From Perkinsus olseni (taxonomy: Eukaryota > Perkinsozoa > Perkinsida > Perkinsidae): a DNA stretch of 64,000 nucleotides. Where the stretch lies: assembly GCA_013115135.1 (NCBI GenBank), contig JABANP010000104.1, forward strand, positions 62,001-126,000, read 5' to 3'. This document shows, in pieces, positions 9,860-55,384 of the stretch. How positions within the stretch are numbered: the stretch's first letter is position 1; every line of letters begins with the position of its first letter. The notes below the pieces were generated by a model, which was not told where the DNA came from, did no database searches, and saw only the letters and a program-made list of their open reading frames with translations. Position numbers and translations under genes: made by a program.

Positions 9860-10819
9860 TCAGCACAAGTACGCAATCACGGCATCGATATCGCTTTCCT
9901 CAGAGCCTGGATGCAACACATAGGTTGTATTGCCGCGTGGGAAACACTCCCAACCCTCGTTTTTCGCGATTGAAATTGCCTCCTTACAAGTCGTAAAGGT
10001 TTGATCGCACAAGTCGGCGAATGTCCTCGAATGCTTCCTTACAGCCTCTCTCACCAGAGGACAGAAATCTTTCATAACCTCATGCACAACACCCAACTTG
10101 CTCACGTCGATTCGGAAATCCCAGCTTTTAGTTGGTTCGACTCCGAGTCCGAGGTAGCCAAAAAACTCATCAAATCGCTCGACTATGTGAGAGAAGGTTC
10201 TGTTGTCGAGATCAAGCAACGGATCCAATCTTGCCTTCTCGGGAGGACCGAACTTGAACACGTAATGCTCATCGGAATCAACGAAATGTCCTCTACACGA
10301 GTGGATGTAGCCAGGCATGTTGTGACCTTCGTCATCACTGAAGTTAAGTCGACATGACTGCACGCTGCCCAATCTCTGTCTTACAATGTAGCACCGAACG
10401 CACCCCGTTCACCACGCTTAGGGCATGCAATGGATTGGGTGATGATGTGGCGGTGGACTGGTCCGTAGGGCCACGTCTGAGGTTTCACCTTCTTCACGGC
10501 AATCTTGAGGCTAGACCAATCTTCTGTCCCTTCCGTGCCGCTGCTGTACTCGCAGAGGGCGTTCAATTCATTGCCGTCTATCCCCTCACCAGTTACCGGA
10601 GGGAAAACCTGAGAGTCGACGACCAGTCGTGAGGAGATAAGATTGAGGTTATACTCCTCGTCAAATCGAGTTATCGAGGCTCATCCTGTGGTCACACGTT
10701 GAGGCTCTTCCGTCATTGGAAGCGGATGAGGACATGATGCGCAATCCATAACCCAAAGGTATGCTGGACAGCGCTGCAACAGCAGCCGTTGCACCGATGA
10801 TACTATTTCTACTAGGCAT
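9860..10819 (-). CDS. Secreted three-exon family, copy E
   Basis: Exon 1 (10819-10712) encodes a signal peptide of the same type as the 42-53 kb copies, with IIGA.AAVAAL and IPLG. Exon 2 (10608-10385) has the family landmarks NALCEYSSG and SIACPKRG.RGAF. Exon 3 (10337-9860) has YVFKFGPP, LDPL.DLD and TFADLCDQ, and ends near YLC. Exon phases match the tandem copies (0, then 2), and intron 2 is 47 nt. It is longer in exon 3 than its relatives, with an extra segment around a GYLGLG turn. The donor after exon 1 reads GAC|GGAAGA where sister copies have GTAAGA, so exon 1 splicing may be lost or non-canonical. Function is unknown; the signal peptide suggests secretion. It lies about 32 kb from, and on the opposite strand to, the tandem array. 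Confidence 0.7.
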
Positions 10820-10912
10820 TTAAAGACTAAGCTTTAAACTACGAGGAGAGATCATCACCCAGGCCATTGGGCGCCGCCCTCTGTAATAGGGGGTCTCAAT
10901 ATTCGCATCGGT

Positions 10913-11670: not shown

Positions 11671-12000
11671 TGTAGACCTTTGGAAATGCCCTTAGGTCCA
11701 CTTGCTCTCTTGCTTTCTTGGATCGCTTGACACTCCTCAACTCGGTCTGAACTTGGTCTGAAGTAGACAAGTGCTCCATGGAATGACCTTTGGCTCGCCG
11801 GTAGCGTGATCGAAATTGGTGTCACGTCACCTTCCGTACGTCACGCATTCTAGTCGCCAAGTGCATCGCTTTGCATCCCGTTCATTCCTTTGGTGGAACT
11901 GTTCTAACCTTACGACCTTTGACCAGGACGTAAGCGTTGAGTTGACTAGTGAGAGCAACGATCTTGGTCACTTGTAGTCTTGCTCACTCGACAGACTACA
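11671..12000 (+). repeat. Left LTR
   Basis: 330 bp, TG...CA. Almost identical to 13390-13728; it lacks the 9-bp CACTATCTG present in the right copy. Confidence 0.92.
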
Positions 12001-13389: not shown

Positions 13390-13728
13390 TGTAGACCTTT
13401 GGAAATGCCCTTAGGTCCACTTGCTCTCTTGCTTTCTTGGATTGCTTGACACTCCTCAACTCGGTCTGAACTTGGTCTGAAGTAGACAAGTGCTCCATGG
13501 AATGACCTTTGGCTCGCCGGTAGCGTGATCGAAATTGGTGTCACGTCACCTTCCGTACGTCACGCATTCTAGTCGCCAAGTGCATCGCTTTGCATCCCGT
13601 TCATTCCTTTGGTGGAACTGTTCTAACCTTACGACCTTTGACCAGGACGTAAGCGTTGAGTTGCACTATCTGACTAGTGAGAGCAACGATCTTGGTCACT
13701 TGTAGTCTTGCTCACTCGACAGACTACA
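13390..13728 (+). repeat. Right LTR
   Basis: 339 bp partner of the left LTR, preceded by the purine tract GCGGGGAGG and followed by the CTGC target duplication. Confidence 0.92.
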
Positions 13729-17299: not shown

Positions 17300-19549
17300 T
17301 TAATTAACGATCGCGGTAACTACAATCGCCAGTACAGCGAACGTCGAGCCGACATCAGCGGCCGCACTAAATATAGGTACAGTCACGGTACTTGGAGCGA
17401 CGGTGGTGGACCGAGGAATGGTCGTGATTCCCGTGGTGGTCACAGGGTCACTGGTAGGGGTGGTAACGGTAACAGTAGCACTGGTCGGCACAGGAGCTGT
17501 CGAGGTGTTAGTGGTGGTCGAGGGATCATTGGTAGGAGTGGTACTACTGGTCGACACAGGAGCCGTCGACGAGGTGGATGAACTCGATGAGGGCCAGGGC
17601 GGAGAGGTTGTAGTGCAGTTGATAGGCCAAGGCTCACAGGTACAGGACATGGTCGAGGTTGTCGTAGTTGTACTCGTCGTAGCTGACGTGGAAGAGTAAG
17701 TGGGAGATGCAGAAGTAGAGCGAGCAGTTGTACTAGACGGTCCCGTAGTGGACTCAGCTGAAGTGCTATACGGTCCCGTAGTGGACTCAGTTGTAGTAGA
17801 AGCCGACGTCGTAGAGTTGGCGGGAGTGGTAGGCGGTCCCGTAGTGGACTCAGCTGAAGTGCTATACGGTCCCGTAGTGGACTCAGTTGTAGTAGAAGCC
17901 GACGTCGTAGAGTTGGCGGGAGTGGTAGGCGGTCCCGTAGTGGACTCAGTTGTAGTAGAAGCCGACGTCGTAGAGTTGGCGGGAGTGGTAGGCGGTCCCG
18001 TAGTGGACTCAGCTGAAGTGCTATACGCTCCCGTAGTGGACTCAGTTGTAGTAGAAGCCGACGTCGTAGAGTTGGCCGGAGTGGTAGGCGGTCCCGTAGT
18101 GGACTCAGCTGAAGTGCTATACGGTCCCGTAGTGGACTCAGTTGTAGTAGAAGCCGACGTTGTAGAGTTGGCGGGAGTGGTAGGCGGTCCCGTAGTGGAC
18201 TCAGCTGAAGTGCTATACGGTCCCGTAGTGGACTCAGCCGAAGTGCTATACGGTCCCGTAGTGGACTCAGTTGTAGTAGAAGCCGACGTCGTAGAGTTGG
18301 CGGGAGTGGTAGGCGGTCCCGTAGTGGACTCAGTTGTAGTAGAAGCCGACGTCGTAGAGTTGGCGGGAGTGGTAGGCGGTCCCGTAGTGGACTCAGCTGA
18401 AGTGCTATACGGTCCCGTAGTGGACTCAGTTGTACTAGAAGCCGACGTCGTAGAGTTGGCAGGAGTGGTAGGCGGTCCCGTAGTGGACTCAGCTGAAGTG
18501 CTATACGCTCCCGTAGTGGACTCAGTTGTAGTAGAAGCCGACGTCGTAGAGTTGGCGGGAGTGGTAGGCGGTCCCGTAGTGGACTCGGCTGAAGTGCTAT
18601 ACGGCCCCGTAGTGGACTCAGTTGTAGTGGAAGCCGACGTCGTAGAGTTGGCGGGAGTGGTAGGCGGTCCCGTAGTGGACTCAGTTGTAGTAGAAGCCGA
18701 CGTTGTAGAGTTGGCGGGAGTGGTAGACGATCCCGTAGAGGAAGCCGTCGTAGGAGGACTGGCTGTCCGAGTGGTGGATGGAGTTGTCGGTGCAAGTGAA
18801 GAGGCATAACAGTGTATCGGTATGGGCGGGCATTCACAACGAGCGGTGGTACGTGCAGGTGTACTGGAGGTCGTCGTAGGCACCGAAGTGGTAGAACTGC
18901 GAGGGCCCTGCGTAGAGCTAGTGTTGGTAGTACTAGACGACGATGGCACTGCTGTAGATGAGGAGCCAGTCGTGGGCACCGAAGTGGTAGGACTGTGGGG
19001 GCCCTGCGTAGAGCTAGTGTTGGTAGTACTGGACGACGATGGCACTGCTGTAGATGAGGAGCCAGTCGTGGGCACCGAAGTGGTAGGACTGTGGGGGCCC
19101 TGCGTAGAGCTAGTGTTGGTAGTACTGGACGACGATGGCACTGCTGTAGATGAGGAGCCAGTCGTGGGCACCGAAGTGGTAGGACTGTGGGGGCCCTGCG
19201 TAGAGATAGTGTTGGTAGTACTGGACGACGATGGCACTGCTGTAGATGAGGGGCCGGTGTAAGGCAAAGCAGTAGTGGTTCCACTGGAAGTAGACGATGT
19301 GGTCCCGGTGGTTGACGACAGCGGCGTTGGTCCAACAACAGCGGCCGACGAGGGAGGAACATCGGCTCCACCACAGGGAACTGATGAGCCTTCACAGAGC
19401 CCAACGGTGAAGTTGCACTTGCTTCCAGTTATTCGGGCTGTGTTCTCACAATAGTCATCCCAAGCTTGCTGACTTGGCACAGCCCCTCCCACTTGGACGA
19501 GTACAGAGGCCATAAGGACGGCATAGACGATGCGGAAGCAGGAAGCCAT
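17300..19549 (-). CDS. Mucin-like surface protein with tandem Ser/Thr/Pro repeats
   Basis: About 749 aa if translation starts at the Met at 19549, chosen because it gives a clean signal peptide (MASCFRIVYAVLMASVLVQVGGA); an upstream in-frame Met at 19585 adds 12 residues. After the signal comes one four-cysteine module starting AWDDYC. Then follow four copies of a 32-residue STP repeat, a CECPPIPIHC loop, a long array mixing an 11-residue (PYSTSAESTTG) and a 21-residue unit rich in TTPANSTTSA, and a second CTCEPWPINC loop. The C-terminus is hydrophobic (STFAVLAIVVTAIVN), as for a GPI signal or membrane anchor. Dense Ser/Thr and NST/NCT sites predict heavy glycosylation, so a cell-surface or wall coat is likely. 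The head-to-head neighbour at 20106 carries the same Cys module. Confidence 0.85.
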   Translation of the reverse strand: MASCFRIVYAVLMASVLVQVGGAVPSQQAWDDYCENTARITGSKCNFTVGLCEGSSVPCGGADVPPSSAAVVGPTPLSSTTGTTSSTSSGTTTALPYTGPSSTAVPSSSSTTNTISTQGPHSPTTSVPTTGSSSTAVPSSSSTTNTSSTQGPHSPTTSVPTTGSSSTAVPSSSSTTNTSSTQGPHSPTTSVPTTGSSSTAVPSSSSTTNTSSTQGPRSSTTSVPTTTSSTPARTTARCECPPIPIHCYASSLAPTTPSTTRTASPPTTASSTGSSTTPANSTTSASTTTESTTGPPTTPANSTTSASTTTESTTGPYSTSAESTTGPPTTPANSTTSASTTTESTTGAYSTSAESTTGPPTTPANSTTSASSTTESTTGPYSTSAESTTGPPTTPANSTTSASTTTESTTGPPTTPANSTTSASTTTESTTGPYSTSAESTTGPYSTSAESTTGPPTTPANSTTSASTTTESTTGPYSTSAESTTGPPTTPANSTTSASTTTESTTGAYSTSAESTTGPPTTPANSTTSASTTTESTTGPPTTPANSTTSASTTTESTTGPYSTSAESTTGPPTTPANSTTSASTTTESTTGPYSTSAESTTGPSSTTARSTSASPTYSSTSATTSTTTTTSTMSCTCEPWPINCTTTSPPWPSSSSSTSSTAPVSTSSTTPTNDPSTTTNTSTAPVPTSATVTVTTPTSDPVTTTGITTIPRSTTVAPSTVTVPIFSAAADVGSTFAVLAIVVTAIVN
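17740..18745 (-). repeat. Mixed 33-bp and 63-bp coding tandem repeats
   Basis: Units starting GGTCCCGTAGTGGACTCAG alternate between a 33-bp form and a 63-bp form in irregular order, with near-perfect DNA identity between copies. Such identity, with only scattered base changes, suggests recent expansion by unequal exchange or slippage. Confidence 0.9.
18870..19262 (-). repeat. 96-bp coding tandem repeat, four copies
   Basis: Four consecutive copies of a 96-bp unit encoding SSSTAVPSSSSTTNTSSTQG and its 12-residue tail. Copies differ by only a few bases. Confidence 0.9.
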
Positions 19550-20105
19550 CAAGGAGCTCGGTAAAATGCTCAAAAGCTGATTCACAGAGATTGATTATCA
19601 CCATTCGAGATAGGATTCAAGTGGCACGATTACACTAGCACACGCGTGCACATCCAACCGTTTCGTCCCAGGGCGCATCCCTTCTCGGCGTGTCTCCACT
19701 TTCGTACCGACGGGAAGCTCCTGAGAGCACCATAGGTGGTACCGTAGGGCCCCTCGAGTGCCGTAGCCCCTGCAGGGTACACAACCTCCTGCTTGCGCCG
19801 CCTTGGTACACGCGTGCCCGCTTCGGCACTGCCGAATCGGCAGTGAAACGGCTCGGCGCGCGCAGGTGACCGCTGACGGGTTGCGGATCGATTCTCAGCC
19901 ACAAGTTGTCAAGCCAGTAACAGCCACTGAGTAATCGAGTAGAGCTCAGCATAGCCCATCCCCGCGTGGAAAGTACCGCGGATCCGCCACAGGTGTAGTT
20001 CCGTGCGATGAAAGACTCAGAAGACGCGGCAAAGTCCACCGCCCCACACTCGATTTTGCATTCAGTCATTAACGCCCTTCCCAACCACTCCCCCGCCGAA
20101 TCGCC
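19550..20105. promoter_or_regulatory. Shared intergenic region of the divergent surface-protein pair
   Basis: About 550 bp separates the two start codons of divergently transcribed genes that share a Cys module. Any promoters for both must lie here, although each could extend into flanking sequence. No clear TATA or Inr motif was identified. Two minus-strand ORFs here have no recognisable content. Confidence 0.35.
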
Positions 20106-38319: not shown

Positions 38320-38856
38320 GGCCCCCACATACGCTACACCCCCCCCCTATCCCCCCATATAGGCTACACCCCCCTATCCCCCATATAGGCTACGGCCCCC
38401 TATCCCCCCATATAGGCTACGGCCCCCTATCCCCCCATATAGGCTACACCCCCCTATCCCCCCATATAGGCTACGGCCCCCTATCCCCCCACATAGGCTA
38501 CGGCCCCCTATCCCCCACATAGGCTACGGCCCCCTTATCCCCCCACATAGGCTACGGCCCCCTTATCCCCCCATATAGGCTACGGCCCCCTATCCCCCCA
38601 TATAGGCTACGGCCCCCTATCCCCCCACATAGGCTACGGCCCCCTATCCCCCCACATAGGCTACGGCCCCCTTATCCCCCCACATAGGCTACACCCCCCT
38701 ATCCCCCCCACATAGGCTACGACCCCCCTGTCCCCCCATATAGGCTACACCCCCCTATCCCCCCCACATAGGCTACGGCCCCCTATCCCCCCATATAGGC
38801 TACGGCCCCCTATCCCCCCATATAGGCTACGGCCCCCCTATCCCCCCGTATGGGCT
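38320..38856. repeat. 27-bp minisatellite, about 19 copies
   Basis: The unit is close to CCCCCCATATAGGCTACGG plus CCCCTAT, repeated head to tail. Copies vary between CATATAGG and CACATAGG, between CTACGG and CTACAC, and by one or two C residues. Strand asymmetry is strong: the plus strand is C-rich with runs of 5-8 C. Confidence 0.95.
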
Positions 38857-42524: not shown

Positions 42525-43384
42525 ATGTTGGCTAAACCTTCCATCGCCGAAGCCCTAGCGGCTGCTACCGCTGTGCTGCTGTCGAGCCTGCCCCTCTCCG
42601 ACGCGACCAAAGCAGCAGCCCGATCCATTCCCGCCTATGATGTAAGGATAGTGTCGGTGTACTTCAAGTACGTCAAGTTGACGCTCGTGGCTTACCATCC
42701 AGCGTGTTGCCCCCTGTACATTCTCAAGAAGCAAATTCATTTTTCCCCATCTGCGTAGACTGGGAACGACACGCCTGTTTCGTTTCCCTCAGGATTACCC
42801 TCGGGCCAGAAAGGCGGTCTTTGACGACAAAATCAACGCCCTTCATTGCTCATTTAGCAACGACCAATTTCGGAAGCGCAATGAGTATTCAGCGGCGCTG
42901 GACTTCTACATCAGCGACGACACCGTGATGACTGGGGCCATCACCTGCCCGAAGGCTGGTGACGAGGAAGCCTTCCAAGCTTCGTAAGACACAGAGGAAA
43001 ATGAAGTCTCTTTTTTCCCAGCCGTGTTTCCTATTCTCCAGTTACCAGAGAAGCCTCACCCTCAAGATGTATAACCCGGACTTTGGTCAAGAATCAGACG
43101 GCTTCCGATTCAGTGGCTCTCCTCCTCCTCGCAGGAAAGGTCTCGATCCACTTAGGAGGCTCAGCTTACCTAACCCTCACTCTCACGACGAAAACCAGCT
43201 CCCAATAGCCGCGAAGACGAGAGAGGCGCTCTGCTCTGATGCCGTTGAGGCTTCAAGGGCTGTATTCGGTAGTTTCGCAGACTTGTGCGCCAAGGTACGC
43301 AAATCTTCCAAAGCTGCCGTCAAAGCCGCTGTCAAAGCCGCCGTCAAAGCTACCGGTAGTGAAGAATTTAAAACGGCTGCCTAA
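42525..43384 (+). CDS. Secreted three-exon family, copy A
   Basis: Exons 42525-42641, 42793-42983 and 43042-43384 splice in frame (phases 0 and 2; introns 151 and 58 nt) to 216 aa. Exon 1 is a signal peptide (MLAKPSIAEALAAATAVLLS, cleavage likely near SDA). Exon 2, which lacks an ATG, reads DYPRARKAVFDDKINALHCS and later LDFYIS, GAITCPKAG and AFQAS. Exon 3 reads LKMYNPDFG, PPPRRKGLDPLRRLSLP and FGSFADLCAKV, with a short Ala/Lys-rich run (KAAVKAAVKAAVKA) near its end. Two cysteines in exon 2 (HCS and TCP) and one in LC are shared by the family. Donors GTAAGG and GTAAGA and both acceptors are canonical. No known domain; secretion is inferred from the leader. First of the tandem array. Confidence 0.8.
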
Positions 43385-43808
43385 CGACTGTGGCTTCAAA
43401 GAGATGATTCCTCCGCCTTAGTGAGCTTCATGAGTTCATATCCATCAATTCCGGTCAATCTTTATCTTATGTGACAGAACCGCAAATCGAATGCATGGAT
43501 GAGATGATTATGACGATGTTGTTGTGTGCAGCCACTTAGGTTTTGTGTTTGTCTAAATCTCAATGAAGGTGCTGTACTGAAACGGCTGTAGTGATTCTGG
43601 TTTCGGCTCCGTCTGCCCACGCAAAGGAGAGCCGCTGGCCAGGAGGGGAACGATCCTAGGAATATACGTGTTTGCTCCCTTTCAGGTCCAACGCCGAAAA
43701 CCGGCTTAGTCTGACTAGCGCCGATGTATCTTGTCTTAAGAGGGATGAGTTTAGGCGAGCAGCTCGCCGCGAGCTTATTGAGCACTAAAGTAGCGCTCAG
43801 GCAGAGGG
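43385..43808. other. 3' flank duplicated with the gene array
   Basis: Contains GATGTTGTTGTGTG and GGTTTTGTGTTTG words that recur after copy D (about 49,370-49,420) and, weaker, after copy B (about 51,300), so the duplicated unit included downstream flank. Confidence 0.5.
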
Positions 43809-43867
43809 CAGTACAGTACAGTACAGTACAGTACAGTACAGTACAGTACAGTACAGTACAGTACAGT
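43809..43867. repeat. (GTACA)11 microsatellite
   Basis: Eleven perfect GTACA units from 43811, directly left of the transposon region. Confidence 0.95.
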
Positions 43868-43886
43868 GAAGCAGTACTACTGCTCA

Positions 43887-43911
43887 ATTCGATGAGCAGT
43901 GCTCATCGAAT
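43887..43911. repeat. 12-bp near-perfect palindrome
   Basis: ATTCGATGAGCA, one base, then its exact reverse complement. It sits between the microsatellite and the MULE 3' end. Confidence 0.85.
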
Positions 43912-43940
43912 AGGGCAAGAGAATACAGACACAAGCTTTG

Positions 43941-44897
43941 CTAGGTCCGGAATTGGGAATGGTCGGAGCGTCTCAAGTCAGGAAGGTCTCCGACTGCTGC
44001 TGGGAACAGGTTAACAGTGTCACTGTCGAGTTGCTCAAAAACATACAACCTCATCCGGGACTCGTCGAACACAACGAGCTCAGGGTCAGATCCGGAGGGG
44101 CCTAGAGCAAACTGAGTCAACCTAGCCAAGACATGCAAAGCGCATGTGTTGGACCCAGTACTCTGCTGCTGAATGCCCATGAAAATTACAGGTTTATTGG
44201 GACCGTAGAGTGTTCGCAAGTAGTGCTTAGCGATAGCGGGTATGCTGTTGACTCCACGGGATAGGCTGTCCATGTAGTAAATAGTTCCTTCTACCCTTGC
44301 AGTCCCAGCGTAGTGATGCTCTGTAGCCAAATTTATAGGCTGCAATAGCAACCCATGACCGGGCGCTCGATTAAACGAGCCTAGCTGGCCGCCGTATCCC
44401 TGCGACATGTACATCGGTTGTGGAGGCACCAGCCTTCCTCCCATGCGTCGCCACAAGATGGTCATCCATGCATCTATGATTGGCTCGTCGATATCCATAC
44501 CTGGAGTGAGCAAGCGCGCTCTCTCTTCATTATGGAGGACCAATTCCTCCGCATACTCACTACCAGGAATAGTTTGAAACACTTTCCAAACCTGATTCCG
44601 GTCAACCCTCCCTGGATCCTGGGTTCCAGGAATAGTCGCCTCACCACGCCGATCTTGATCCACTGTCCGTCTAGAGGCATCGCCAGCACTGGTCTGGCTC
44701 GGGTTGGCTGAGCCAGCTGGAACTTCCAACACCACAACATCTTCACCAAAGGGCCGTACAATGCTGAAGAAATCAGTGCCTTCTTGCTCTTCGTCGAGAT
44801 CGGGCACGAAGAACTCTGGACCGGTTGGAGTACTTGGAATAATCGCAGGCCGAATGCGTCGAAGCACAGCCCTCGCCGAGGCGAACCATCGTTGCAA
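43941..44897 (-). CDS. C48 (Ulp1-like) cysteine protease part of the MULE
   Basis: About 318 codons. The catalytic set of C48 proteases can be read: His in TEHHYAG, Asp in IYYMDSLSRG, Gln in MGIQQQSTGSNTC and Cys in the same NTC followed by ALHVLARL. In Ulp1/SENP enzymes this set removes SUMO-like modifiers; in transposons the role is unknown. An acidic N-terminal half (VPDLDEEQEG) precedes it. It overlaps the transposase frame by about 120 bp, offset by one, so the two are probably halves of one polyprotein split by a frame shift or unseen intron. Confidence 0.7.
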   Translation of the reverse strand: MQRWFASARAVLRRIRPAIIPSTPTGPEFFVPDLDEEQEGTDFFSIVRPFGEDVVVLEVPAGSANPSQTSAGDASRRTVDQDRRGEATIPGTQDPGRVDRNQVWKVFQTIPGSEYAEELVLHNEERARLLTPGMDIDEPIIDAWMTILWRRMGGRLVPPQPMYMSQGYGGQLGSFNRAPGHGLLLQPINLATEHHYAGTARVEGTIYYMDSLSRGVNSIPAIAKHYLRTLYGPNKPVIFMGIQQQSTGSNTCALHVLARLTQFALGPSGSDPELVVFDESRMRLYVFEQLDSDTVNLFPAAVGDLPDLRRSDHSQFRT

Positions 44898-46300
44898 GCT
44901 CGGTCGAGAGCTGTCTACCTCCTCGCGATTCGCGAACCACGAGTTCAGTGAGTCTCACATCAGTAACCTCATAAGTTCGGCGACGCTTGTGTGGAGCGCC
45001 ACTTTCAAGTGAAGCTATGTCGCTCTGCACTTGATTCATAACTCTGTGCACAACAAGGACCCAAGACCACAAGTTAGGGTGCCCATCAACAGTGAATAGC
45101 GAGTTCCACTTTCGGTGGAATCCCTCTTGGTTGTTGTTCGTTCTGGGCAAACCCTCCCTCACGCGCTCTCTCATATTCCATAGATGCGGGGGGTATAGAC
45201 CATTAGGTCCATACGTGTTCAAGAAGTAGATCAGTATAGACGCTCGTTCCTCTTGACCAAGAGGCGATACAGCTTCTAAGACGCCCTCCAGCGTGATTTT
45301 GACCGGTAGAAAAGCAACCGAAAGCAAGTCATAGTAAGCATGACGACGATCACGCATAGCATCCTTGTCGCCGAGCTTGAACAGACCCTCATCCCTGAAT
45401 TTCTCCCAGACGTTGTTACCCAGATGAAATAGGCATAGGCAAATTCGCACACCAGGGAAAATAACTTCGAACGAGCTTATCGCCGCGTACTCGAAGTCGA
45501 AAATACAAGACGTATCGTCTTGTATTTTCGACTTCGAGTACGCGGCGACCCCTTAGAATCGTCTTAGACGATATCCCTGACGGAAACAGGCCAGCGACCA
45601 TCTGGAAAAACCGTTGGTACGTTGCAGCAGTCTTATTGGGAAGCGCCGCGAAGACAATCGGAACCCATCTTCCAGATCGATGTCGCAGCATAATCGTATA
45701 CTTCTGACGCCAGTGAACAGGAGCTCTTTTGAAGGTTCCATCGCATGAAATATCGACCCTAGGGGACCCTTGTAACAGCCTACTGACAACCGTTACGTCG
45801 CAGTAGACGAGTATTTGATCTGCGTCTGCTTCACCACTATCAGAATAAAGAGAAGGTCGCCACTCTCCGGCAGATTCTACATGTGTGAAGCGGGGCTCAA
45901 TGCTAAAGCCGTACCTTGCTTTGGGAACCTTCAAGGTCGGGCATAGGATTAGCCTTTGCCTTCGCTCGCCTCAAGCTCTGCATGACTGCGTCTTTCCGAC
46001 CAATATGTGACAGCCACTCAGGAGGAACTGCACTAGTAACCTTATCATAAGCTTCCACGATCGGCGTGTCGGGTCCTGCACCTCTCACCAGCTCCTTCAT
46101 CGTATTCACCATGACTTTTCCGAAGGCGTTGGGCGGGCAACAGCTGTGGGGCTTCATTGTAAGCCTGTTTTTGATAACCAACTGATCCGCAGGCAGAACA
46201 TCAGTGTCCCCAATGATAGTTAGTCGAGCGCTGCATGTAGGAAAGCCCTTCCGACCACTGCAGTTTCATTTCCAGTATGAAATGTCCTTCCCCTTCTCCT
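44898..46300 (-). pseudogene. MULE transposase with FLYWCH finger, interrupted
   Basis: The finger reads YKFCLFRKEKGKDISYWK, then a TGA (46266-46268) where family members carry Cys or another residue, then NCSGRKGFPTCSARL and, after TMKP, HSC. The DDE core follows: DGTFKRAPVHWRQKYTIML (first Asp), VPIVFAALPNKTAATYQ, then, past a foldback insert, IFDFEYAAISSFEVIFPGVR (second Asp) with CLCLFHLGNNVW. The C-terminal zone has PRTNNNQEGFHRKWN, as in MULE transposases. The 69-bp foldback at 45480-45548 sits exactly before the second catalytic Asp and shifts the frame. Confidence 0.75.
45480..45548. repeat. 33-bp perfect foldback inside the transposase core
   Basis: 45480-45512 and 45516-45548 are exact reverse complements with a 3-nt spacer. 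The right-to-left reading of the left arm is the genuine coding sequence for the second catalytic Asp region, so the other arm is an inverted copy. Confidence 0.95.
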
Positions 46301-46327
46301 TTCTGAAGAGGCAGAACTTGTAGATAA

Positions 46328-46392
46328 GAAGCGGCTTACTGCGCTCGGATAGGGTGTAGACTACACCCTATCCGAGCGCAGTAAGCCGCTTC
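46328..46392. repeat. 32-bp perfect foldback upstream of the FLYWCH finger
   Basis: 46328-46359 and 46361-46392 are exact reverse complements around a single base. One arm encodes LSERSKPLL, which runs into the FLYWCH segment. Confidence 0.95.
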
Positions 46393-47246
46393 ACCGTGTA
46401 GTGCAGTGTTTCGGGATCGGTGGAAGACATATTGTTCGATGTCCGAGAATATACGAGAAAAACAACTCACTACAGCTGTGTAGGACCATGGTATCAAATA
46501 GCGCTCAAGCGGAGCGCTCCACAAGTGCTTCACGGGGTGCACACCATGGCCTGCCAACCCGAACGTTCCGGAGGAGACCTGGTGCAATCAGATCGTATAA
46601 GTGGCTAGCGTGAAAGAAATTTGGAGATGTTGTGTGCTCCGTCCCCGTCGAGGACCCCCCGGAGATGGACCCTTTTTCATGTATGCGTGAGACTTGACAA
46701 GCCGTAATCCCCGTGTAAACGGTCCGATCGACACTAGTAACGCACACCGGAGCCAACAAAACTCGAAAGGGATAGTAGACTTTTGCGGTCAAAGCGACGA
46801 TATCTCTCTCTTTGCCGAAACGTTGCATCTTCCTCGTGCCCTTCTCGTCAGCATCGACCCTCTCCCACTCGGGGTGTAAGTGCACCAACCTTTTGTGGAC
46901 CAGATTGGGGACCGACAGCGAATCAACTGCGACCACCGCGGGTACTAGTCGATCACAGGCCACACGTTCATCTTGGTGGCCCAGCACTGCTGGGCCAGCA
47001 GCGCGTCAAACGGCCGAAAGGGACTCCGATCGAGCCTCGGGGGAAGCGGCGATGGTGGCGTACACAGGCTTCTCGGAACGCTTATATTGACCAGGGACGC
47101 TGCTGTGAACTTCAGTGGAAGACGAGGGACTTTCCTGAGGGGTCTTCCCTTCACTAGGGACAGGCTCAGCCTTGTCGTTGTTGGGGTTGTTCAGGTACTT
47201 CTTGCGGAACCATTCGGGCACGGAAGTGCAAGCCGGATTCCTCCAG

Positions 47247-47942
47247 GAGCCCGTTCAAGTGCAAAACACTTCCGAGTTCCGAGTCTGAGTACTTCCCTCC
47301 GAGTCAGTATTCGTAGTGAACGAGTTCCGAGTAATCGTCTGTTCAAGTCCGGCCGCTCGGTTTGGTCGCATTTCCGAGCTGTTTTGCAAAGTACGAATCC
47401 CGAGTTAATTTTTCTCGTGTTCAAGTCATTGCTGTGAGAAATGGCTCCGACTCGGAAAAGTAGCCTTACTCGGTGAACTTATTCCTGCGACGAAACGCGC
47501 TGCGGGACAGAAACACAACGCAACTTTTTTACTTCGTTCTCGTCAATACAATACGAGTTTGCACTATGAGGCCCTCACAGTGAGGAATAGGCTATTCCGA
47601 GTAGCTACATTACTGGTAGTAATCATTCCATAGCATAGTATGATCCAAGGGAACGGAAGCGTTGCGTTCGCAGGAAGTTCGGGTTGCGAAAGGACTCGGA
47701 AACACTAGCCCTCCCCACTCGGACTCGGATTCACCTTTAGCGAGCCGAGTGGGCGGCACTTGAACTAAGAACTCGGTTCGAGTTATCCCAGAGCTCGGAT
47801 TTCCAGGCCGCAGAGAATTTCTTAGCTCTCGGAAAGTGAACTCGGGAAAAGTTTGCACTTGAACGGACAATTTTTCTCTGAGCTCGGAAGGGTGCTCTTT
47901 CCGAGAACTAAGACTCGGAAATGGGAGCACTTGAACGGGCTT
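47247..47942. mobile_element. MITE nested in the gag gene, Harbinger-like target site
   Basis: Ends are inverted repeats, GAGCCCGTTCAAGTGC on the left and GCACTTGAACGGGCTT on the right, with at least 15 bp matching. It is flanked by CAG at 47244-47246 and 47943-47945. Removing the element and one CAG restores the gag frame from the zinc knuckle (..DC) into WRNPAC, which fixes the insertion point. A 3-bp CWG target is typical of some PIF/Harbinger elements. The interior is non-coding and packed with ACTCGGAA / TTCCGAGT words. Confidence 0.8.
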
Positions 47943-49045
47943 CAGCAGTCAACCGGGTCGTGGACTCCTGAACGCTTACAGAATGGACATAGGTCATCCG
48001 AGATCTCCTCAGTCCGGGAAGGAGCACTGTTCCTCCTTGTGGTACCACGACTCCGCTTGCCTGACCGTTGACCACCGGCTGAAGACTTCTGGTTCTTGGA
48101 CTCCCAAGGAAACCACGTGTAGTGCCGCGTCTCCTGTTGGATGATCGCGGATACCACCATCGTGTAGTCGAGATCAGAGAGGGCAACCATGTCTTTCCTC
48201 CATCTCGCCGTCACGGCCTCGGAGTGACAGGCTCTCACGGCTGACATTATCTGAGCTATGCGCTCCTGCTCGTCGGGAGGGCTCACGGAGTAGAAGTTGC
48301 AGACAGAGATCAGCTCCTCCCATGTTTGTTGCTCTCGCGATAGGAAGGTCTCAACGTACTCGTCCTTCTCCTGCACCAGAGCATGCCACTTGGATATAGA
48401 CTCTTCAGGAGAGGAGAAGCCGAAGTTGGACGCCTCCCACTCGGTCACCATATAATCGGTGAGGTCAGTCCAAGTATTAGGAGAGCGAGCCTGGCATAGA
48501 CATTGGTAACGGTGGAAGGACTCGAGGCTGACGGAGTTCAGGTCGTAGGTCTCATCGTAAACCACGGCTCCGCGATTCTTCTCCGCCTCGCCAATGAGGT
48601 CAGTGACTGGTCTCTTTGTGGTGATGAACGTCTTGAAGGCGGCTTCAGTGCGGACCTTCAATAAAGGGGTCGACAGTGTTATGTGGAACATGATCAAAAC
48701 GCATATTATCATGGGACCGTCGAGCTCATAGGCGATCTCCATATGCGAGCTGGCCTCTTCTAAGGCAGATATAGACGTTCCGCTGTTGGCGAGGGTCTCG
48801 AACACGCCATCTTTGGATAACCTTTTCATCAGTTGGGGAAGGGTTGCACACCAGTAAGTATCATACAGCCATTTGTAGTGAGCCTTCATATTGATACACT
48901 GGGACAACATGTGGGCGACATCCCGTCGAGTGGTGAACGATGGGTATCGCTTGTTAGATAGCCGGGTAGTGCCGGTAGTAGCCTTACCAGAGGGATTCTC
49001 AGCTGAATCCTTCTGGCGTGGGGAAGTCGCTAGAGTGGTCGACAC
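47943..49045 (-). CDS. Gag-like protein of the retroelement
   Basis: 367 codons beginning at a GTG next to the family-fragment boundary, so the true N-terminus is probably lost. The middle is helical and capsid-like (LLKVRTEAAFKTFITTKRPV, YMVTEWEASNFGF, FLSREQQTWEELISVCN). A basic Ser-rich tail (KRSRGTTRRNSAPSRT) precedes the zinc-knuckle-like CX2CX5HX4C. The stop TGA arises at the MITE junction. Only the knuckle supports the gag call; the rest is by layout. Confidence 0.55.
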
Positions 49046-49049
49046 CGAC

Positions 49050-49232
49050 CGTCACATTGAGACTTCCACGGTTAAAATCGGTAGTTTCGCGGAGCTGTGC
49101 ACCAAGGTACGCGAATCGTCCAAAGCCGCCGTCAGAGAAAGCCTCAAAGCTGCCCGCGAAGCTGCCAATCGTGAAGAGTGGACGCCCGCGCCTGACGGCA
49201 GTGGTTCGAATAAGATAGTTCTCCCGGAATAG
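49050..49232 (+). pseudogene. Secreted family, copy D: 3' end only
   Basis: Reads IGSFAELCTKVRESSKAAVR and continues to EEWTPAPD and a stop, closely matching the end of copy A's exon 3 (FGSFADLCAKVRKSSKAAVK). Its 3' flank also matches copy A's. Everything upstream is replaced by the retroelement, so the gene is truncated. Confidence 0.75.
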
Positions 49233-50332
49233 TGGGAACAGCTACGTTGGGACTCTCCAGGCCGGACACCCACTCTATAAATTACTATTTATCAATATCG
49301 CTCTAACGTTATTAGGAAGATGTTTGATGGTATCGAACGTGAAAGGGGATGTGTGAATAAGATTATCATGATGATGTTGCTGTTCTGTACGGGTGCTCTA
49401 ATTTTGTGTTGCCCTGTATCTTAATGAAGCCATCGCTGTAATTCTGGTCTCCGCTCCGTCCGCCCGCACTAGAGGCAATCGCGTGGGAGCAGGGCTACGA
49501 TTGTCGGGTAAGAATCCTCAGCCTTGGGCGTCATTCTACCGATAAGAGTACTTCGTTGACAACCCGCTCAGCAGCACAGTGCTGCCAGCACTCACAGACA
49601 CTTGAAGATAGAAGCGAAACCCGCGCGAACAATTGGCACTCTTCGGGTAGATTAGGCAGGTAAGTTACTGTGAGTTAGCGCTATCGGATTCTTACCATCC
49701 CATCATGACGCAGTTTGACTGACCCCGACACTAGAAGAGGAGATAATTTCGACTCGCTCTTGAAGTAACTTCAATGAAGTTCTTGGTTGCTCAGAGAAAT
49801 AATCTCCCCAGGGCAGCATACGCAAAGGGTACGCGGCACAAAGTCGGGAACCCCGCTCAGCGGAAGCTGCGGAGGAAGTCAGCTGGGAAGGTAAATTTCT
49901 CAGGAGCTTTCTGAAAATTAGTTCATCTATCAAGCAAGTGCTTCCTTCGATTGATACGGAATTTATAAGGTTATGGTCTCTAGCAGTATGACCGACGCAG
50001 AACTGTAGTGACAACAACAGGCCGGGTTCGACGACGTTTCCGCCGCTCGAAGGCTGACGCGGTAACGCCTAGAGGCGAGCGATACCACCCTCCTACGCGC
50101 AAAAGGCATATTCCTTCACAGGCCTTCATTGAGGGCCCTTCAACTTAGAGTGAAGTCAGGGGCAGGTTGTGAGAATCGGCCTCCCTCGCGTTCTATGAAC
50201 TGGCACAGACGGACTAGAGCCAGTGTCAAAACTGAGGAGCGTATCTTAGGGTTCCACCATCAACAGGGTCGCGGCAACAGCGAGCACTCGGATTGTCGAT
50301 AGTTTTATGCAGTGTTGTTGCTGATCAATCAA
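49233..50332. other. Spacer of the gene array
   Basis: Holds the duplicated 3' flank of copy D and the 5' flank of copy B. No other gene seen. Confidence 0.5.
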
Positions 50333-51164
50333 ATGCCGGCTAAGAAGTTCATCATCGGGGCCTCAGCAGCTGCAGCAGCGGTGCTCTCAAACTTACCCTT
50401 CTGTGCCGCGATCGGAGCAACCGCCGCTGCCGACGTAAGAACCTCTAACACACAGACAGCGGTCAGTAGGCGTTGATCGAACAGCAATGGGAGTGTCTAT
50501 GAGGATGATGAGTTTTATTAACCGTTTTTACGGGACGATGAAGTTTGTTGTTCTCAGGACTACCCTGGGGAGATATCTTCGACCTTCGACGATAGGAAGA
50601 ACGCCCTTCGTTGTTCATACGGCAATGGCAAGAAACGCACTGGTCAATCGCCCTCCTTCGACTTCTACATCACCGGGAGCACCATGAAAACAGAGTCCAT
50701 CGCCTGCCCTAAGGCTGGTCGTCGAAGAGCGTTCCGAACAGCGTAAGAGGTTGATGAGAGGCAGCGTATCTTTCGTCGAACTTTGCTTTCTGTATGACAG
50801 TTACTACATGCACCCCGCCCTGAAGATGTATAATCCCGACCCGGCAAGTGGCCGGCGTAGTTACGTTTTCAGAGTGGCCCCTCCTCCTAGGAACACCGGT
50901 TTGGATCCTCTCGGGAAGCTCAGCATACCTGACCCTCGTTTTCACGATAAGGACGAACTTTTCACCGCTGCCAAGAAGAGACCATCTAGTTGTCCCGTTG
51001 CGATTGAGGTTATCAAGAAGGCATTCGGTTACACCTTCGCGGACCTATGTAACGCGTTTCATGCAGTGTCTAGGGAAGCCATCAGAGCTGCGGGGCGCGA
51101 GGGATGGGACTTCACGAATAATACACTTGGTTCAACGGACGTTATGCCCAAGTTGTCGAAGTGA
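50333..51164 (+). CDS. Secreted three-exon family, copy B
   Basis: Exons 50333-50434, 50558-50742 and 50801-51164 splice in frame (introns 123 and 58 nt, phases 0 and 2) to 216 aa, the same length as copy A. Exon 1 is a signal peptide (MPAKKFIIGASAAAAAVLSN, then FCAA). Exon 2: DYPGEISSTFDDRKNALRCS, SFDFYITGS, SIACPKAG and AFRTA. Exon 3: LKMYNPDPASG, YVFRVAPPPRNTGLDPLGKL and YTFADLCNAF, ending with EGWDFTNN. Donors are GTAAGA and GTAAGA; acceptors CTCAG and GACAG. No frame breaks. Unknown function; a secreted or surface protein is the likeliest fate. Confidence 0.85.
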
Positions 51165-52206
51165 GCGTATAGCGACGGCAGGGGAATGCTTGAATTCGTG
51201 AACCTGGTGTCTTTGATTTTTTTATTTCCGGACGAAGAGGCTATGACGATGGAATTGGCTGTATTGTGATGATACTTTAAACCATGGTAATGGTCATGCA
51301 GATGTTGTTGTTCAAAGCAACTTAGATTTCGCGTTCGATTCAGCCCGTTTGTGGAGGGAATATTTTTACCGTCGACGTCATAGACTTTCCCCGCAGCTTT
51401 TCATTGCAAAGGTCTGGATTTGAACTCTGGGCAGAGATGAAGGTCACCTGGTGATTGAACGTGCTTGGGGCAGTTTTAACTGATGACCCCACATGGAGGG
51501 GCACCGTGTGTTCGGAATCTTGCTTCGATCTCGCATTGTTGTAAGATTCGCGATTTATGAGCTCAGCACCCGGATGAGAACATGCCGCGGCTCGACCAAA
51601 GCAGACCACGGATGCTCCCCGAAACAACACAACACAGCCCGTCTATCAGTCATCCTTCCCCAAAACCACATTGGGGGCAAAGAAAAGGCCAACCCAGTCC
51701 GATACAACCTACGTGGTAACGTAACTCTACGGCAAACGGATGGGGCAGTCCGACAGAATGTTGATAGTAGTTTACAACTCCAGTAGGAAGCTACTTGACC
51801 GTCCGGCTGGGCTTGAGCTTCTCCATGCCAACCTAAGAGAGACCGCGAGGACCAGCGAGCTATTCTGGGTTCTGGGTGATCCTAGTTTACAGGATCTCCT
51901 AGCGGGAGATCTACGCTTTGTGTTACTTAAGTTCGTATTGGACGATGGTCCCTACGCTCGAGCACCGGAAAGGCCAGCGATATCTCCCTCCGTTGCGCGA
52001 GCTCCTTTTTCCAGTACATTTTTCGCAACTCCGCATTGGACCAGGCGTCAGGTTTGGATGTCAGTCTAGACTCGTGAATTATCGGTTGACGGTGAATTCG
52101 GAGGCTGCTTTGGAAGGCCGCGCGGTGACAAGCACCACAGAGGGCTTATCTGCGATGAGCATCAAGAGTGATGCAGATCCGCGCAGTTTCGGAGCTGGAA
52201 ATAATA
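51165..52206. other. Spacer with overlapping open frames
   Basis: Frames at 51740-52069 and 51918-52307 are open on the plus strand, the first with LRETARTSELFWVLGDPSLQ. I cannot join them or recognise a family, so no gene is called. Confidence 0.35.
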
Positions 52207-53005
52207 ATGTCAACCAACCAGTTGATCATCGCATCGTTGGCGACAGCAGTTGCACTGATCTCGAACTTACCCTTCTCTACTGCGATCGGGGCAGCAGCCC
52301 TCTTTGACGCGACCGGTGATGTAAGCCAGCCCACCGATTCTCTTAATCGCACTCACAGCGGTCACCGAACTGTGAAGCATAATCGTTTCTTCCAAGAGTC
52401 CCGACAGAATATGCTACTCACTCTTAGGGCTACCCTGGGAGGAAGAAAGCATCATTCGACGAGACAAGAAGCGCCACTCACTGTTCCTACAGTAACCACA
52501 GGGAATACTCAGAGCAGTGGGCATCATTGGACTTCTACATCACGGGAAGTAGCATCCGAACAGGATCGATCGTTTGTCCCGAGACCAACCGTTGGGATAC
52601 TTTCCGAGCCGCGTAAGTGATGCATGCAGGATGATATAGAATAGGAGTGCCTCTCTACGTTGTAGTTACTGGACTAGCAACGTCCTCAGACTGTTCAATC
52701 CCGACGTCTTGAGACTTCGCCGTAGCTATTTTTTCCATCGCCCTCCTCCTGAGAACACCGGCGGGGATCCGCTCAGAGAGGTGCACCTCTCAGCGCCTCG
52801 TTTCTACAACGTAGGCCGCTGTTCGACCGCCATTCGGGCTATCAAGCTGAAATTTGGCGAGACTTTCTCTGACTTGTGCGCGCAGTTCTCCAGAGTTTCT
52901 CAAGGAACCCTCAACGCCGCTGTACGGAATGAGTGGCTGTTTGTTGATGAATTAGAGACACTTACGATGGTATTTCCTCGCCGCGGTCCAGCACCGTCGA
53001 GTTGA
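52207..53005 (+). CDS. Secreted three-exon family, copy C
   Basis: Exons 52207-52320, 52428-52612 and 52666-53005 splice in frame (introns 107 and 53 nt, phases 0 and 2) to 212 aa. Exon 1 signal peptide: MSTNQLIIASLATAVALISN then PFSTA. Exon 2: GYPGRKKASFDETRSATHCS, SLDFYITGSS, SIVCPETN, TFRAA. Exon 3: VLRLFNPDV, RPPPENTGGDPLREVHL, ETFSDLCAQFS. Exon 2 has exactly the same length (185 nt) as in copy B. All splice sites are canonical and no frame break is seen. This is the most diverged of the three full array copies in exon 3. Confidence 0.82.
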
Positions 53006-53572: not shown

Positions 53573-55162
53573 CTAATACGATCCGCCAGAGAGCTGGTCA
53601 GTTGGACCGACCTCTTTTGACGGGCCCTTGACCTCTGCTTGTGGTTGATCTGGTAAATAGCGGCCTTGAGCGAGGAAGCCCTCAGTGCGGGGAAAGAGCT
53701 TACGCTGCACTATCGACACCGCTAGAGTGACCACGACACTTCCCACCATCACAACAAGGAAGACGATCATCGCTGTTGACGAGTACAGGCCGCCTGGCAA
53801 GGTATACATTATGAAACCCCCAACGAAGGTGCCGGTCGAAGCCCAGCCGTAAATCAATATCGCGAGGTTGGCGGCGATAATACCACAGACGGCGCCAAAG
53901 GTCGTGACTGTCGAATAGAGACCGCAGTACGCCGGCATGCAGATCGTAGCAGCGACGAGGTCGGCGACGAGGAAGAGGTTGATAACGGAGATCTCCCTCA
54001 TGGCCACGACTATCGCCGGGACGTTCATCAGGACCAACAGCAGCCGTCCCCAGTTCAAACTCCATCCACGCTTGACAAACTCGGCGGCGAACACCGACAG
54101 GAAGGCCGATTGCAGAGAGTCGACACTTGAGGTGGTGAGACAGATGGCGAGGACCACAACCGCACCGACTGCCGCGTTCGGCAGAACTCCCAGCAGGTCG
54201 AAGAAGGCCAAGGACTTCGTGTACGGGTCCAACGTGAGGTGGGGTACTGGGCGGGCACGGTCTTGAGCCTCGGCTAGCATGCCCAGCACGCCAAAGGCGA
54301 TCATAGTGAGGAATATGAGAGTACCTCCGAGGAGCAAACCCATCCTCAAGTTGAAGTCATTCTTAGCCGCCCAGACCCTCTGCCAGATGACCATGTCGAG
54401 TAGCTGAAAGCCGAGGATAGCCAGGATGAGGGCGATGAGACTTTGGAAACCCAGACTGCTCCAATTGGCGACGGCATTCCAGTCAGCTGTGGTCACAGTG
54501 ACGTTGGTAGAAGTGGCGACCACGGCGAAGACTATCAGACCAACTGCTGCTACACCCTGGGCCATATCGGTCAGAATAGAGACGGGAAGGCCGGCGACTA
54601 GAGTGTAGCTGAGCGTGATGACCGCTACTGAGAGAGTCGACAACCACACCGGTATGCCTGTGAACATTCTAATAACTTGTCCAACGGCAGTGTACTCAGC
54701 GGTGGTGCTGATCCACATGAGGAAGATGGACACGAGGACAGCGTAGGCTTGGACGAGGCGGCCAAACCTAGCCAGGATCCAGTCCGTAGCAGCATATCCT
54801 TCACTACCTCCAGCTGCCATATATGAGTTCATCTTCCTCCTGATCTTCACTCCCAGGACCCAGATGATCGCCATGGGGACGACACAGGCCAGGGCGTATC
54901 CAAGAACTCCCCACCAGCCGAGGAACGTGCCAACTTCGGGCGCGGCATAGATAACCCAGGTCCCCATACCGCTGGCAAAATAGGAGGCTCCAATCCAAGC
55001 CCAACTGAAGCGCTTTCTTGCAGCATAGAAGTCCTGCGCGGCATCCGCGTTCGACTGCACCATGACGCGACTGCGGAAGACCAGCAGAAGGTAGGCGACG
55101 GCCGCGAAGACGCCCAGGGTGATGTAGAGGATGAGGTAGCCAGAGAGAGTTGAGAGACGCAT
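53573..55162 (-). CDS. Sodium:solute symporter (SSS family)
   Basis: 529 aa from the Met at 55162 (MRLSTLSGYLILYITLGVFA), chosen because it begins the first membrane span; an in-frame extension to 55360 is low-complexity and probably 5' leader. About 13 hydrophobic spans are visible. The early segment DFYAARKRFSWAWIGASYFA, with GMGTW and GYALACVVPMAI, fits spans 2-4 of the SSS fold. The conserved core has TDMAQGVAAVGLI and GFQLLDMVIWQRVWAAK. Then comes LTTSSVDSLQSAFLSV, the Ser/Thr-rich span contributing the second sodium site. The tail is cytosolic. The best general match in my knowledge is the eukaryotic DUR3/SSS group, but the substrate is not readable. No intron is needed. It lies about 220 bp downstream of the LPAAT gene on the same strand. 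Confidence 0.85.
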   Translation of the reverse strand: MRLSTLSGYLILYITLGVFAAVAYLLLVFRSRVMVQSNADAAQDFYAARKRFSWAWIGASYFASGMGTWVIYAAPEVGTFLGWWGVLGYALACVVPMAIIWVLGVKIRRKMNSYMAAGGSEGYAATDWILARFGRLVQAYAVLVSIFLMWISTTAEYTAVGQVIRMFTGIPVWLSTLSVAVITLSYTLVAGLPVSILTDMAQGVAAVGLIVFAVVATSTNVTVTTADWNAVANWSSLGFQSLIALILAILGFQLLDMVIWQRVWAAKNDFNLRMGLLLGGTLIFLTMIAFGVLGMLAEAQDRARPVPHLTLDPYTKSLAFFDLLGVLPNAAVGAVVVLAICLTTSSVDSLQSAFLSVFAAEFVKRGWSLNWGRLLLVLMNVPAIVVAMREISVINLFLVADLVAATICMPAYCGLYSTVTTFGAVCGIIAANLAILIYGWASTGTFVGGFIMYTLPGGLYSSTAMIVFLVVMVGSVVVTLAVSIVQRKLFPRTEGFLAQGRYLPDQPQAEVKGPSKEVGPTDQLSGGSY

Positions 55163-55384
55163 GTTGGAGAACTCGCTTCCTACGCAGGTATTGTCCTGAT
55201 CAGGTGGTGACGGTTTGATCTCAGCAAGTACCGAAGGGATGGTACGAGCACCCGTGCGAGTGCGAAATTGAAGAGTAAACCTGAAAATGGAAAACGGCAA
55301 AGGAAGGCAAAAGCGAAAACTCAAAAACTCTGACGATGGAAAAGAAACTTTGCTAGACACTCAAGTATTCGGGTGTGTTTTGGC

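What the first reader, a model, noticed from the sequence alone, without database searches (positions are those of the whole stretch)
42525..53005. A hidden, tandemly duplicated secreted protein family with a fixed three-exon plan
Three full copies (42525, 50333, 52207) and one truncated copy (49050) lie in one strand orientation. Each full copy has a signal-peptide exon ending in phase 0, an ATG-less middle exon ending in phase 2 (185-191 nt), and a last exon. Shared landmarks are NA..CS, DFYI.., CP..., ..NPD, PPP...DPL and F.DLC. Two copies are both 216 aa. Exon 2 is invisible to ATG-based ORF calling, so automated annotation may have split or missed these genes. A fast-diversifying secreted family in a probable parasite is a good candidate for host-interface proteins. 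Splicing and homology are read from sequence; function is inference.
Basis: partly seen in the sequence, partly recalled or inferred. Interest (0 to 1): 0.87.

Follow-up and report, generated by a model that had tools for sequence, protein, structure and literature searches.

The report
Large secreted protein family in Perkinsus
The three look-alike genes are real and belong to a large, scattered family of apparently secreted proteins in a mollusc parasite, for which I found no description; what the proteins do is unknown.

Summary
Copies A, B and C (42525, 50333, 52207) are homologous three-exon genes: a signal-like exon (phase 0), a 185-191 nt middle exon (phase 2) and a last exon. A 3' fragment lies at 49057. 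Profiles of relatives, without the window copies, recover all of these (the fragment weakly), plus a fourth member, D, at 10820-9860 on the minus strand. The genome is Perkinsus olseni. The family is far larger than the finding says: eight exon searches merge to 111 gene-like places on 62 contigs at E<=1e-3, haplotype copies and fragments included; 56 have a neighbour within 6 kb, and all 33 such adjacent pairs share a strand. The plan is shared: of 43 anchored middle-exon sequences, 41 have the acceptor at the same codon and 36 a donor in phase 2, against 10 and 3 in the other phases. Two public gene models agree with the splicing; others fuse neighbours. No significant Pfam or PDB match. 'Fast-diversifying' is not supported: dN/dS between haplotypes is below 1 wherever defined. 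Region A is mosaic between haplotypes. A host-facing role is plausible but untested.

The parts
42525..42641 (+). copy A exon 1: signal-like, ends phase 0
42793..42983 (+). copy A exon 2, 191 nt, phase 2
43042..43385 (+). copy A exon 3; about 57-78% identical to the C454 allele in 60-nt windows, unlike exon 1
49057..49232 (+). 3' fragment of exon 3 (truncated copy); 169 of 176 bases match the 3' end of the C454 allele of A, 125 of 176 match copy A
50333..50434 (+). copy B exon 1: signal-like
50558..50742 (+). copy B exon 2, 185 nt, phase 2
50801..51164 (+). copy B exon 3
52207..52320 (+). copy C exon 1: signal-like
52428..52612 (+). copy C exon 2, 185 nt, phase 2
52666..53005 (+). copy C exon 3
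10713..10820 (-). copy D putative exon 1, read by eye; its 3' border lacks a canonical donor dinucleotide in this haplotype
10385..10608 (-). copy D exon 2, 224 nt, phase 2
   Evidence: E 2.8e-10, profile free of window copies; borders by eye
9860..10337 (-). copy D exon 3
   Evidence: (E 5.3e-12); borders by eye

Best explanation
These are members of a large family of secreted proteins in Perkinsus olseni, with no relative found outside that species. Exon 1 encodes a signal-like N-terminus and is spliced in phase 0 to a module of about 62 residues carrying two conserved cysteines. That module is spliced in phase 2 to a C-terminal module with a proline-rich segment (PP.NTGLDPLR in many members) and a second conserved cysteine pair. 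Shown by sequence: the exon plan, the four cysteines in the members aligned, one-strand clusters, dN/dS below 1, and a structural difference between haplotypes. Inferred: the signal peptide is removed, each cysteine pair forms a disulfide, and a soluble product of roughly 20-27 kDa is released. It would then act outside the cell, most likely on host tissue or host defence molecules. Tandem duplication, recombination between haplotypes and loss of pieces would supply the repertoire. The family anatomy is near certain; the host-facing role is a guess of about one in two.
For: 111 gene-like places on 62 contigs at E<=1e-3 in the union of eight searches (counted); 33 adjacent pairs within 6 kb, all same strand. 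Of 43 anchored middle-exon sequences 41 have AG exactly at the anchor codon, against 0-2 at each of twelve other offsets, and 36 a donor-type sequence in phase 2, against 10 and 3 in phases 0 and 1. Cys 53, 84, 160, 179 of P0002 are invariant in 9 of 9 sequences that I chose for alignment, and the first two in 21 of 21 middle exons. Gene models P0002 and P0010 agree with the splicing. dN/dS below 1. Haplotype rearrangement at A. All 11 proteins returned by the three protein searches are named P. olseni.
Against: No RNA or protein evidence. Secretion rests on hydrophobic N-termini; no signal-peptide predictor was run. One member (L057 model) has a hydrophobic stretch near its C-terminus, so not all need be soluble. 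Nothing ties the family to the host: no RxLR or PEXEL motif in the first 100 residues of 20 rows checked, several without a full N-terminus, and no excess of amino-acid change. Single-sequence links between subfamilies are weak: the C189 exon 3 query finds B at 0.0032, A at 0.116 and D at 0.81.
Confidence: 0.55

Rival explanations
1. Secreted structural proteins of the parasite's own wall or extracellular matrix, for example of the sporangium, with no direct action on the host.
For: Signal-like exons, conserved cysteines and N-glycosylation sequons in 18 of 20 rows, though not in A or C; dN/dS below 1.
Against: Over a hundred divergent places in small clusters and a structural haplotype difference seem more than a wall protein needs; this is a judgement, not a test.
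Confidence: 0.25
2. Secreted proteins for feeding, defence or signalling outside any host, such as inhibitors or binding proteins, expanded without host pressure.
For: No host-targeting motif found; no dN/dS above 1.
Against: No enzyme or inhibitor family matched; nothing positive supports it.
Confidence: 0.15
3. Mostly decaying genes: the array is a graveyard with few active members.
For: The 49057 fragment; D's non-canonical exon 1 border; several hits with stops inside.
Against: A, B and C are open; whole-gene dN/dS of B and C against other haplotypes is 0.22-0.41; B's changes favour third codon positions; most middle exons keep both borders.
Confidence: 0.05

Closest known systems
P. olseni hypothetical proteins FOZ63_003160 (P0002), FOZ61_003821 (P0001), FOZ60_009795 (P0010)
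   Same: P0002 is 93% identical over 100% of the B query; P0010 is 99% identical over 100% of the model predicted for the C189 member, and both are 249 aa
   Different: Unnamed; P0001 fuses parts of A and B. UniRef labels P0002 'Tat pathway signal sequence domain', a label not tested here
Large clustered secreted or surface families of apicomplexans, such as pir (recalled, not tested)
   Same: Resembles them in being big, clustered and signal-bearing
   Different: No sequence link sought or found; no PEXEL motif in the rows checked
Oomycete RXLR effectors (recalled)
   Same: Large families of small secreted proteins
   Different: No RxLR motif in the first 100 residues of 20 rows; conserved cysteines; a fixed intron plan

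Membership tests
P. olseni three-exon secreted family (defined here) | Middle exon starting at X-[YF]-P, phase 0 in, phase 2 out | tested here: met
   A, B, C; 35 of 43 anchored sequences meet both borders, 3 of the 8 misses being cut by the end of the fetched locus; control offsets and phases
P. olseni three-exon secreted family (defined here) | Four conserved cysteines, CP, PP...DP and G..F...C | tested here: met
   invariant in 9 of 9 sequences of A2, including a B-type protein, A and C
P. olseni three-exon secreted family (defined here) | N-terminal signal peptide | tested here: inconclusive
   29 of 35 models got an exon 1 candidate, at least two unconvincing; the scoring favoured hydrophobic candidates; no SignalP run
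RXLR / PEXEL exported effectors | RxLR or RxLxE/D/Q after the signal peptide | tested here: not met
   0 of 20 rows (19 distinct sequences), first 100 residues; seven rows lack exon 1
Any Pfam-A family | Score above curated cut-off | tested here: not met
   P0001-P0003: none above cut-off, best 16.8 bits against 27 for DUF7155; 9 members of A2: best E 0.008
Host-acting effector | Delivered to and acting on the host | not testable with these tools
   needs expression, localisation and binding data

The most novel reading that the evidence does not exclude
An undescribed secreted repertoire, with more than a hundred places counting haplotype copies, forms the main variable host-facing protein set of Perkinsus. 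A constant signal exon and fixed intron phases would let recombination swap the last exon between copies and haplotypes, as the mosaic A gene suggests.
Probability: 0.2. Interest if true: 0.8.

Novelty: new member of a known kind. Interest (0 to 1): 0.55.

Why it matters
Perkinsus olseni is a parasite of clams and other molluscs, and, as far as I recall, how it handles its hosts at the protein level is little known. A large apparently secreted family with no known domain, partly mis-annotated, gives a concrete list of genes to look for in RNA and secreted-protein data. It also gives profiles that can be run on other Perkinsus species to ask when the family arose.

Tried and rejected
Considered and rejected: chance similarity (profiles without window copies, shuffles and shifted borders); RXLR or PEXEL membership; strong positive selection. 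Exon 3 of A had no tblastn match in the phage collection. PDB searches with P0002 and with the family profile gave nothing significant (best E 1.2 and 0.17). Ten literature searches were made, nine on this subject and one on the riboswitch (61). Judged by the titles and abstract openings listed, none describes this family. Several lists were capped, and the library is open-licence PubMed Central only, so this is weak evidence of absence. Beyond listings I saw passages of PMC2868825 and PMC4260697.

Led nowhere or was mended: alignment search of the genome; structure prediction. In one search copy D was wrongly part of the exon 3 profile that found it; one search repeats the test without it. 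My borders were off and were corrected. The border pass picked some wrong anchors and donors and was redone. In one search the donor was sought in phase 2 only, so its '35 of 35 in phase 2' is by construction; one search is the real control. A looser count (124 places) was replaced. One search stopped on a division by zero after printing the fragment comparison; one search finished it. Two notebook phrases go beyond the evidence: 'MULE-like' (recalled, not tested) and 'all with same exon plan'.

Full report
What was claimed.

A fourth member. The same profiles find copy D on the minus strand, exon 2 (E 2.8e-10) and exon 3 (E 5.3e-12), at 9860-10608, with a putative signal exon up to 10820 read by eye. 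Its exon 1 border lacks a canonical donor dinucleotide in this haplotype; the copy on contig C516 has one (1070 of 1101 aligned bases identical).

Organism. All 11 proteins found in the three protein searches are named Perkinsus olseni. P0010 is named FOZ60_009795 and lies on a contig of 50,789 bases, the length of contig C331 of the window's own genome. The window's genome is therefore most likely that P. olseni assembly.

Family size. Eight exon searches of the own genome were merged at E<=1e-3: 111 gene-like places on 62 contigs, 56 with a neighbour within 6 kb, 33 adjacent pairs all on the same strand and none opposed. The number includes haplotype copies, because the same gene occurs on several contigs (C189, C331 and C252 at 95-100%), and fragments such as the one at 49057, and some hits with stops inside. 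On the other side, the tool calls such counts lower bounds. Single-sequence links between subfamilies can be weak: the C189 exon 3 query finds B at 0.0032, A at 0.116 and D at 0.81, though B's C454 allele at 3.8e-7.

Exon plan. The held loci gave 53 distinct middle-exon sequences, 43 with the X-[YF]-P anchor. These are sequences, not genes: haplotype copies and pieces cut by a locus end are among them. Of the 43, 41 have AG exactly before the anchor codon; at twelve neighbouring offsets the count is 0 to 2. A donor-type sequence lies in the expected seven codons in phase 2 for 36, in phase 0 for 10 and in phase 1 for 3. Both borders are present in 35, and three of the eight misses run into the end of the fetched locus. 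Random rates in the window are 0.065 and 0.135. An exon 1 candidate was found for 29 of 35, at least two unconvincing, with a scoring that favours hydrophobic candidates.

Public annotation. P0002 (216 aa) and P0010 (249 aa) agree with the splicing predicted here, which supports the models, though gene models are not transcripts. P0001 fuses part of A with part of B, P0004 appears to fuse two members, and P0009 joins a fragment to a RING protein. So the claim that annotation split or missed some genes is partly right. How many members are annotated at all was not measured, because the protein search is limited to shared words.

Selection. Nei-Gojobori dN/dS is 0.22 for B against C454, 0.18 for B exon 3 against C202, 0.24 for B exon 3 of C454 against C202, 0.32 and 0.41 for C against C454 and C202, and 0.61 for C of C454 against C202. 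Exon by exon these comparisons range from 0.05 to 0.54. For A against its C454 allele it is 0.22 in exon 2 and 0.52 in exon 3. It is undefined for exon 1 of A against C454 and of C against C202, which have one replacement and no silent change each. Paralogues A, B, C have dN 0.48-0.60 and dS 1.2-1.9, close to saturation. Third codon positions dominate for B (p=1.6e-4) but not significantly for C. So rapid adaptive change is not shown. B exon 3 differs more between window and C454 (11.0%) than intron 1 (8.2%), intron 2 (3.4%) or the B-C interval (6.2%), but the 114 alignable bases just upstream of B differ by 30%. Old alleles or conversion from another copy could explain this; I did not separate them.

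Rearrangement between haplotypes. C454 and C202 carry the same locus (94.5% and 96.2% over about 7.6 kb). At A, the window and C454 are 95-100% identical, gaps aside, up to about 42760, vary between 80 and 94% through exon 2, then fall to 57-78% from 43000 through exon 3. The 49057 fragment instead matches the 3' end of the C454 allele at 169 of 176 bases, against 125 of 176 for copy A; with its downstream flank the match is 87% over 514 columns. The 5.6 kb between 43400 and 49056 gave no match in the first 30 kb of C454. The window haplotype thus has a rearranged, mosaic A region. I cannot say which arrangement is older.

How it most likely works. Shown: signal-like exon, four invariant cysteines in the 9 sequences aligned, a proline-rich PP...DP segment, no match above cut-off in Pfam and no significant solved relative. 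The last 20 residues of the rows look hydrophilic by eye, but the L057 model has a hydrophobic stretch near its end. Inferred: secretion, two disulfides, soluble release and an extracellular target, probably in the host. The wall-protein rival is open.

Known or new. Nine literature searches on the subject listed nothing I could recognise as this family, in an open-licence library only. I rate it a new family of a known kind: an expanded secreted multigene family in an alveolate parasite.

Noticed in passing
55160-55265 (-), ORF 53576-55360 (-): TPP riboswitch (60.4 bits) in or beside a frame with a borderline sodium:solute symporter match (22.2 bits, cut-off 22.8). PMC4260697 passages already report a TPP riboswitch in P. 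marinus and riboswitch-linked symporters in other lineages.
   Followed up: partly
45480-45548 and 46328-46392: Two perfect inverted repeats with 33 and 32 nt arms and 3 and 1 nt between, in the segment not matched in C454.
   Followed up: no
43941-49045 (-): Four minus-strand frames (318, 225, 172 and 367 aa) without Pfam match in the 5.6 kb not matched in C454; possibly a mobile element, not identified.
   Followed up: no
17303-19585 (-) and 17700-18809 (+): Long frames open on both strands over a 96-nt minisatellite; no Pfam match for the minus-strand frame.
   Followed up: no
38342-38856: 27-nt minisatellite, 18.9 copies.
   Followed up: no
11671-11944 and 13390-13663: 274-nt direct repeat, reported as 100% identical, 1719 bases apart.
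   Followed up: no
window (C7), L061/L062/L064 (C454), L063 (C202): Three contigs hold the same locus at 94-96% identity, which suggests more than two haplotypes in the assembly.
   Followed up: no
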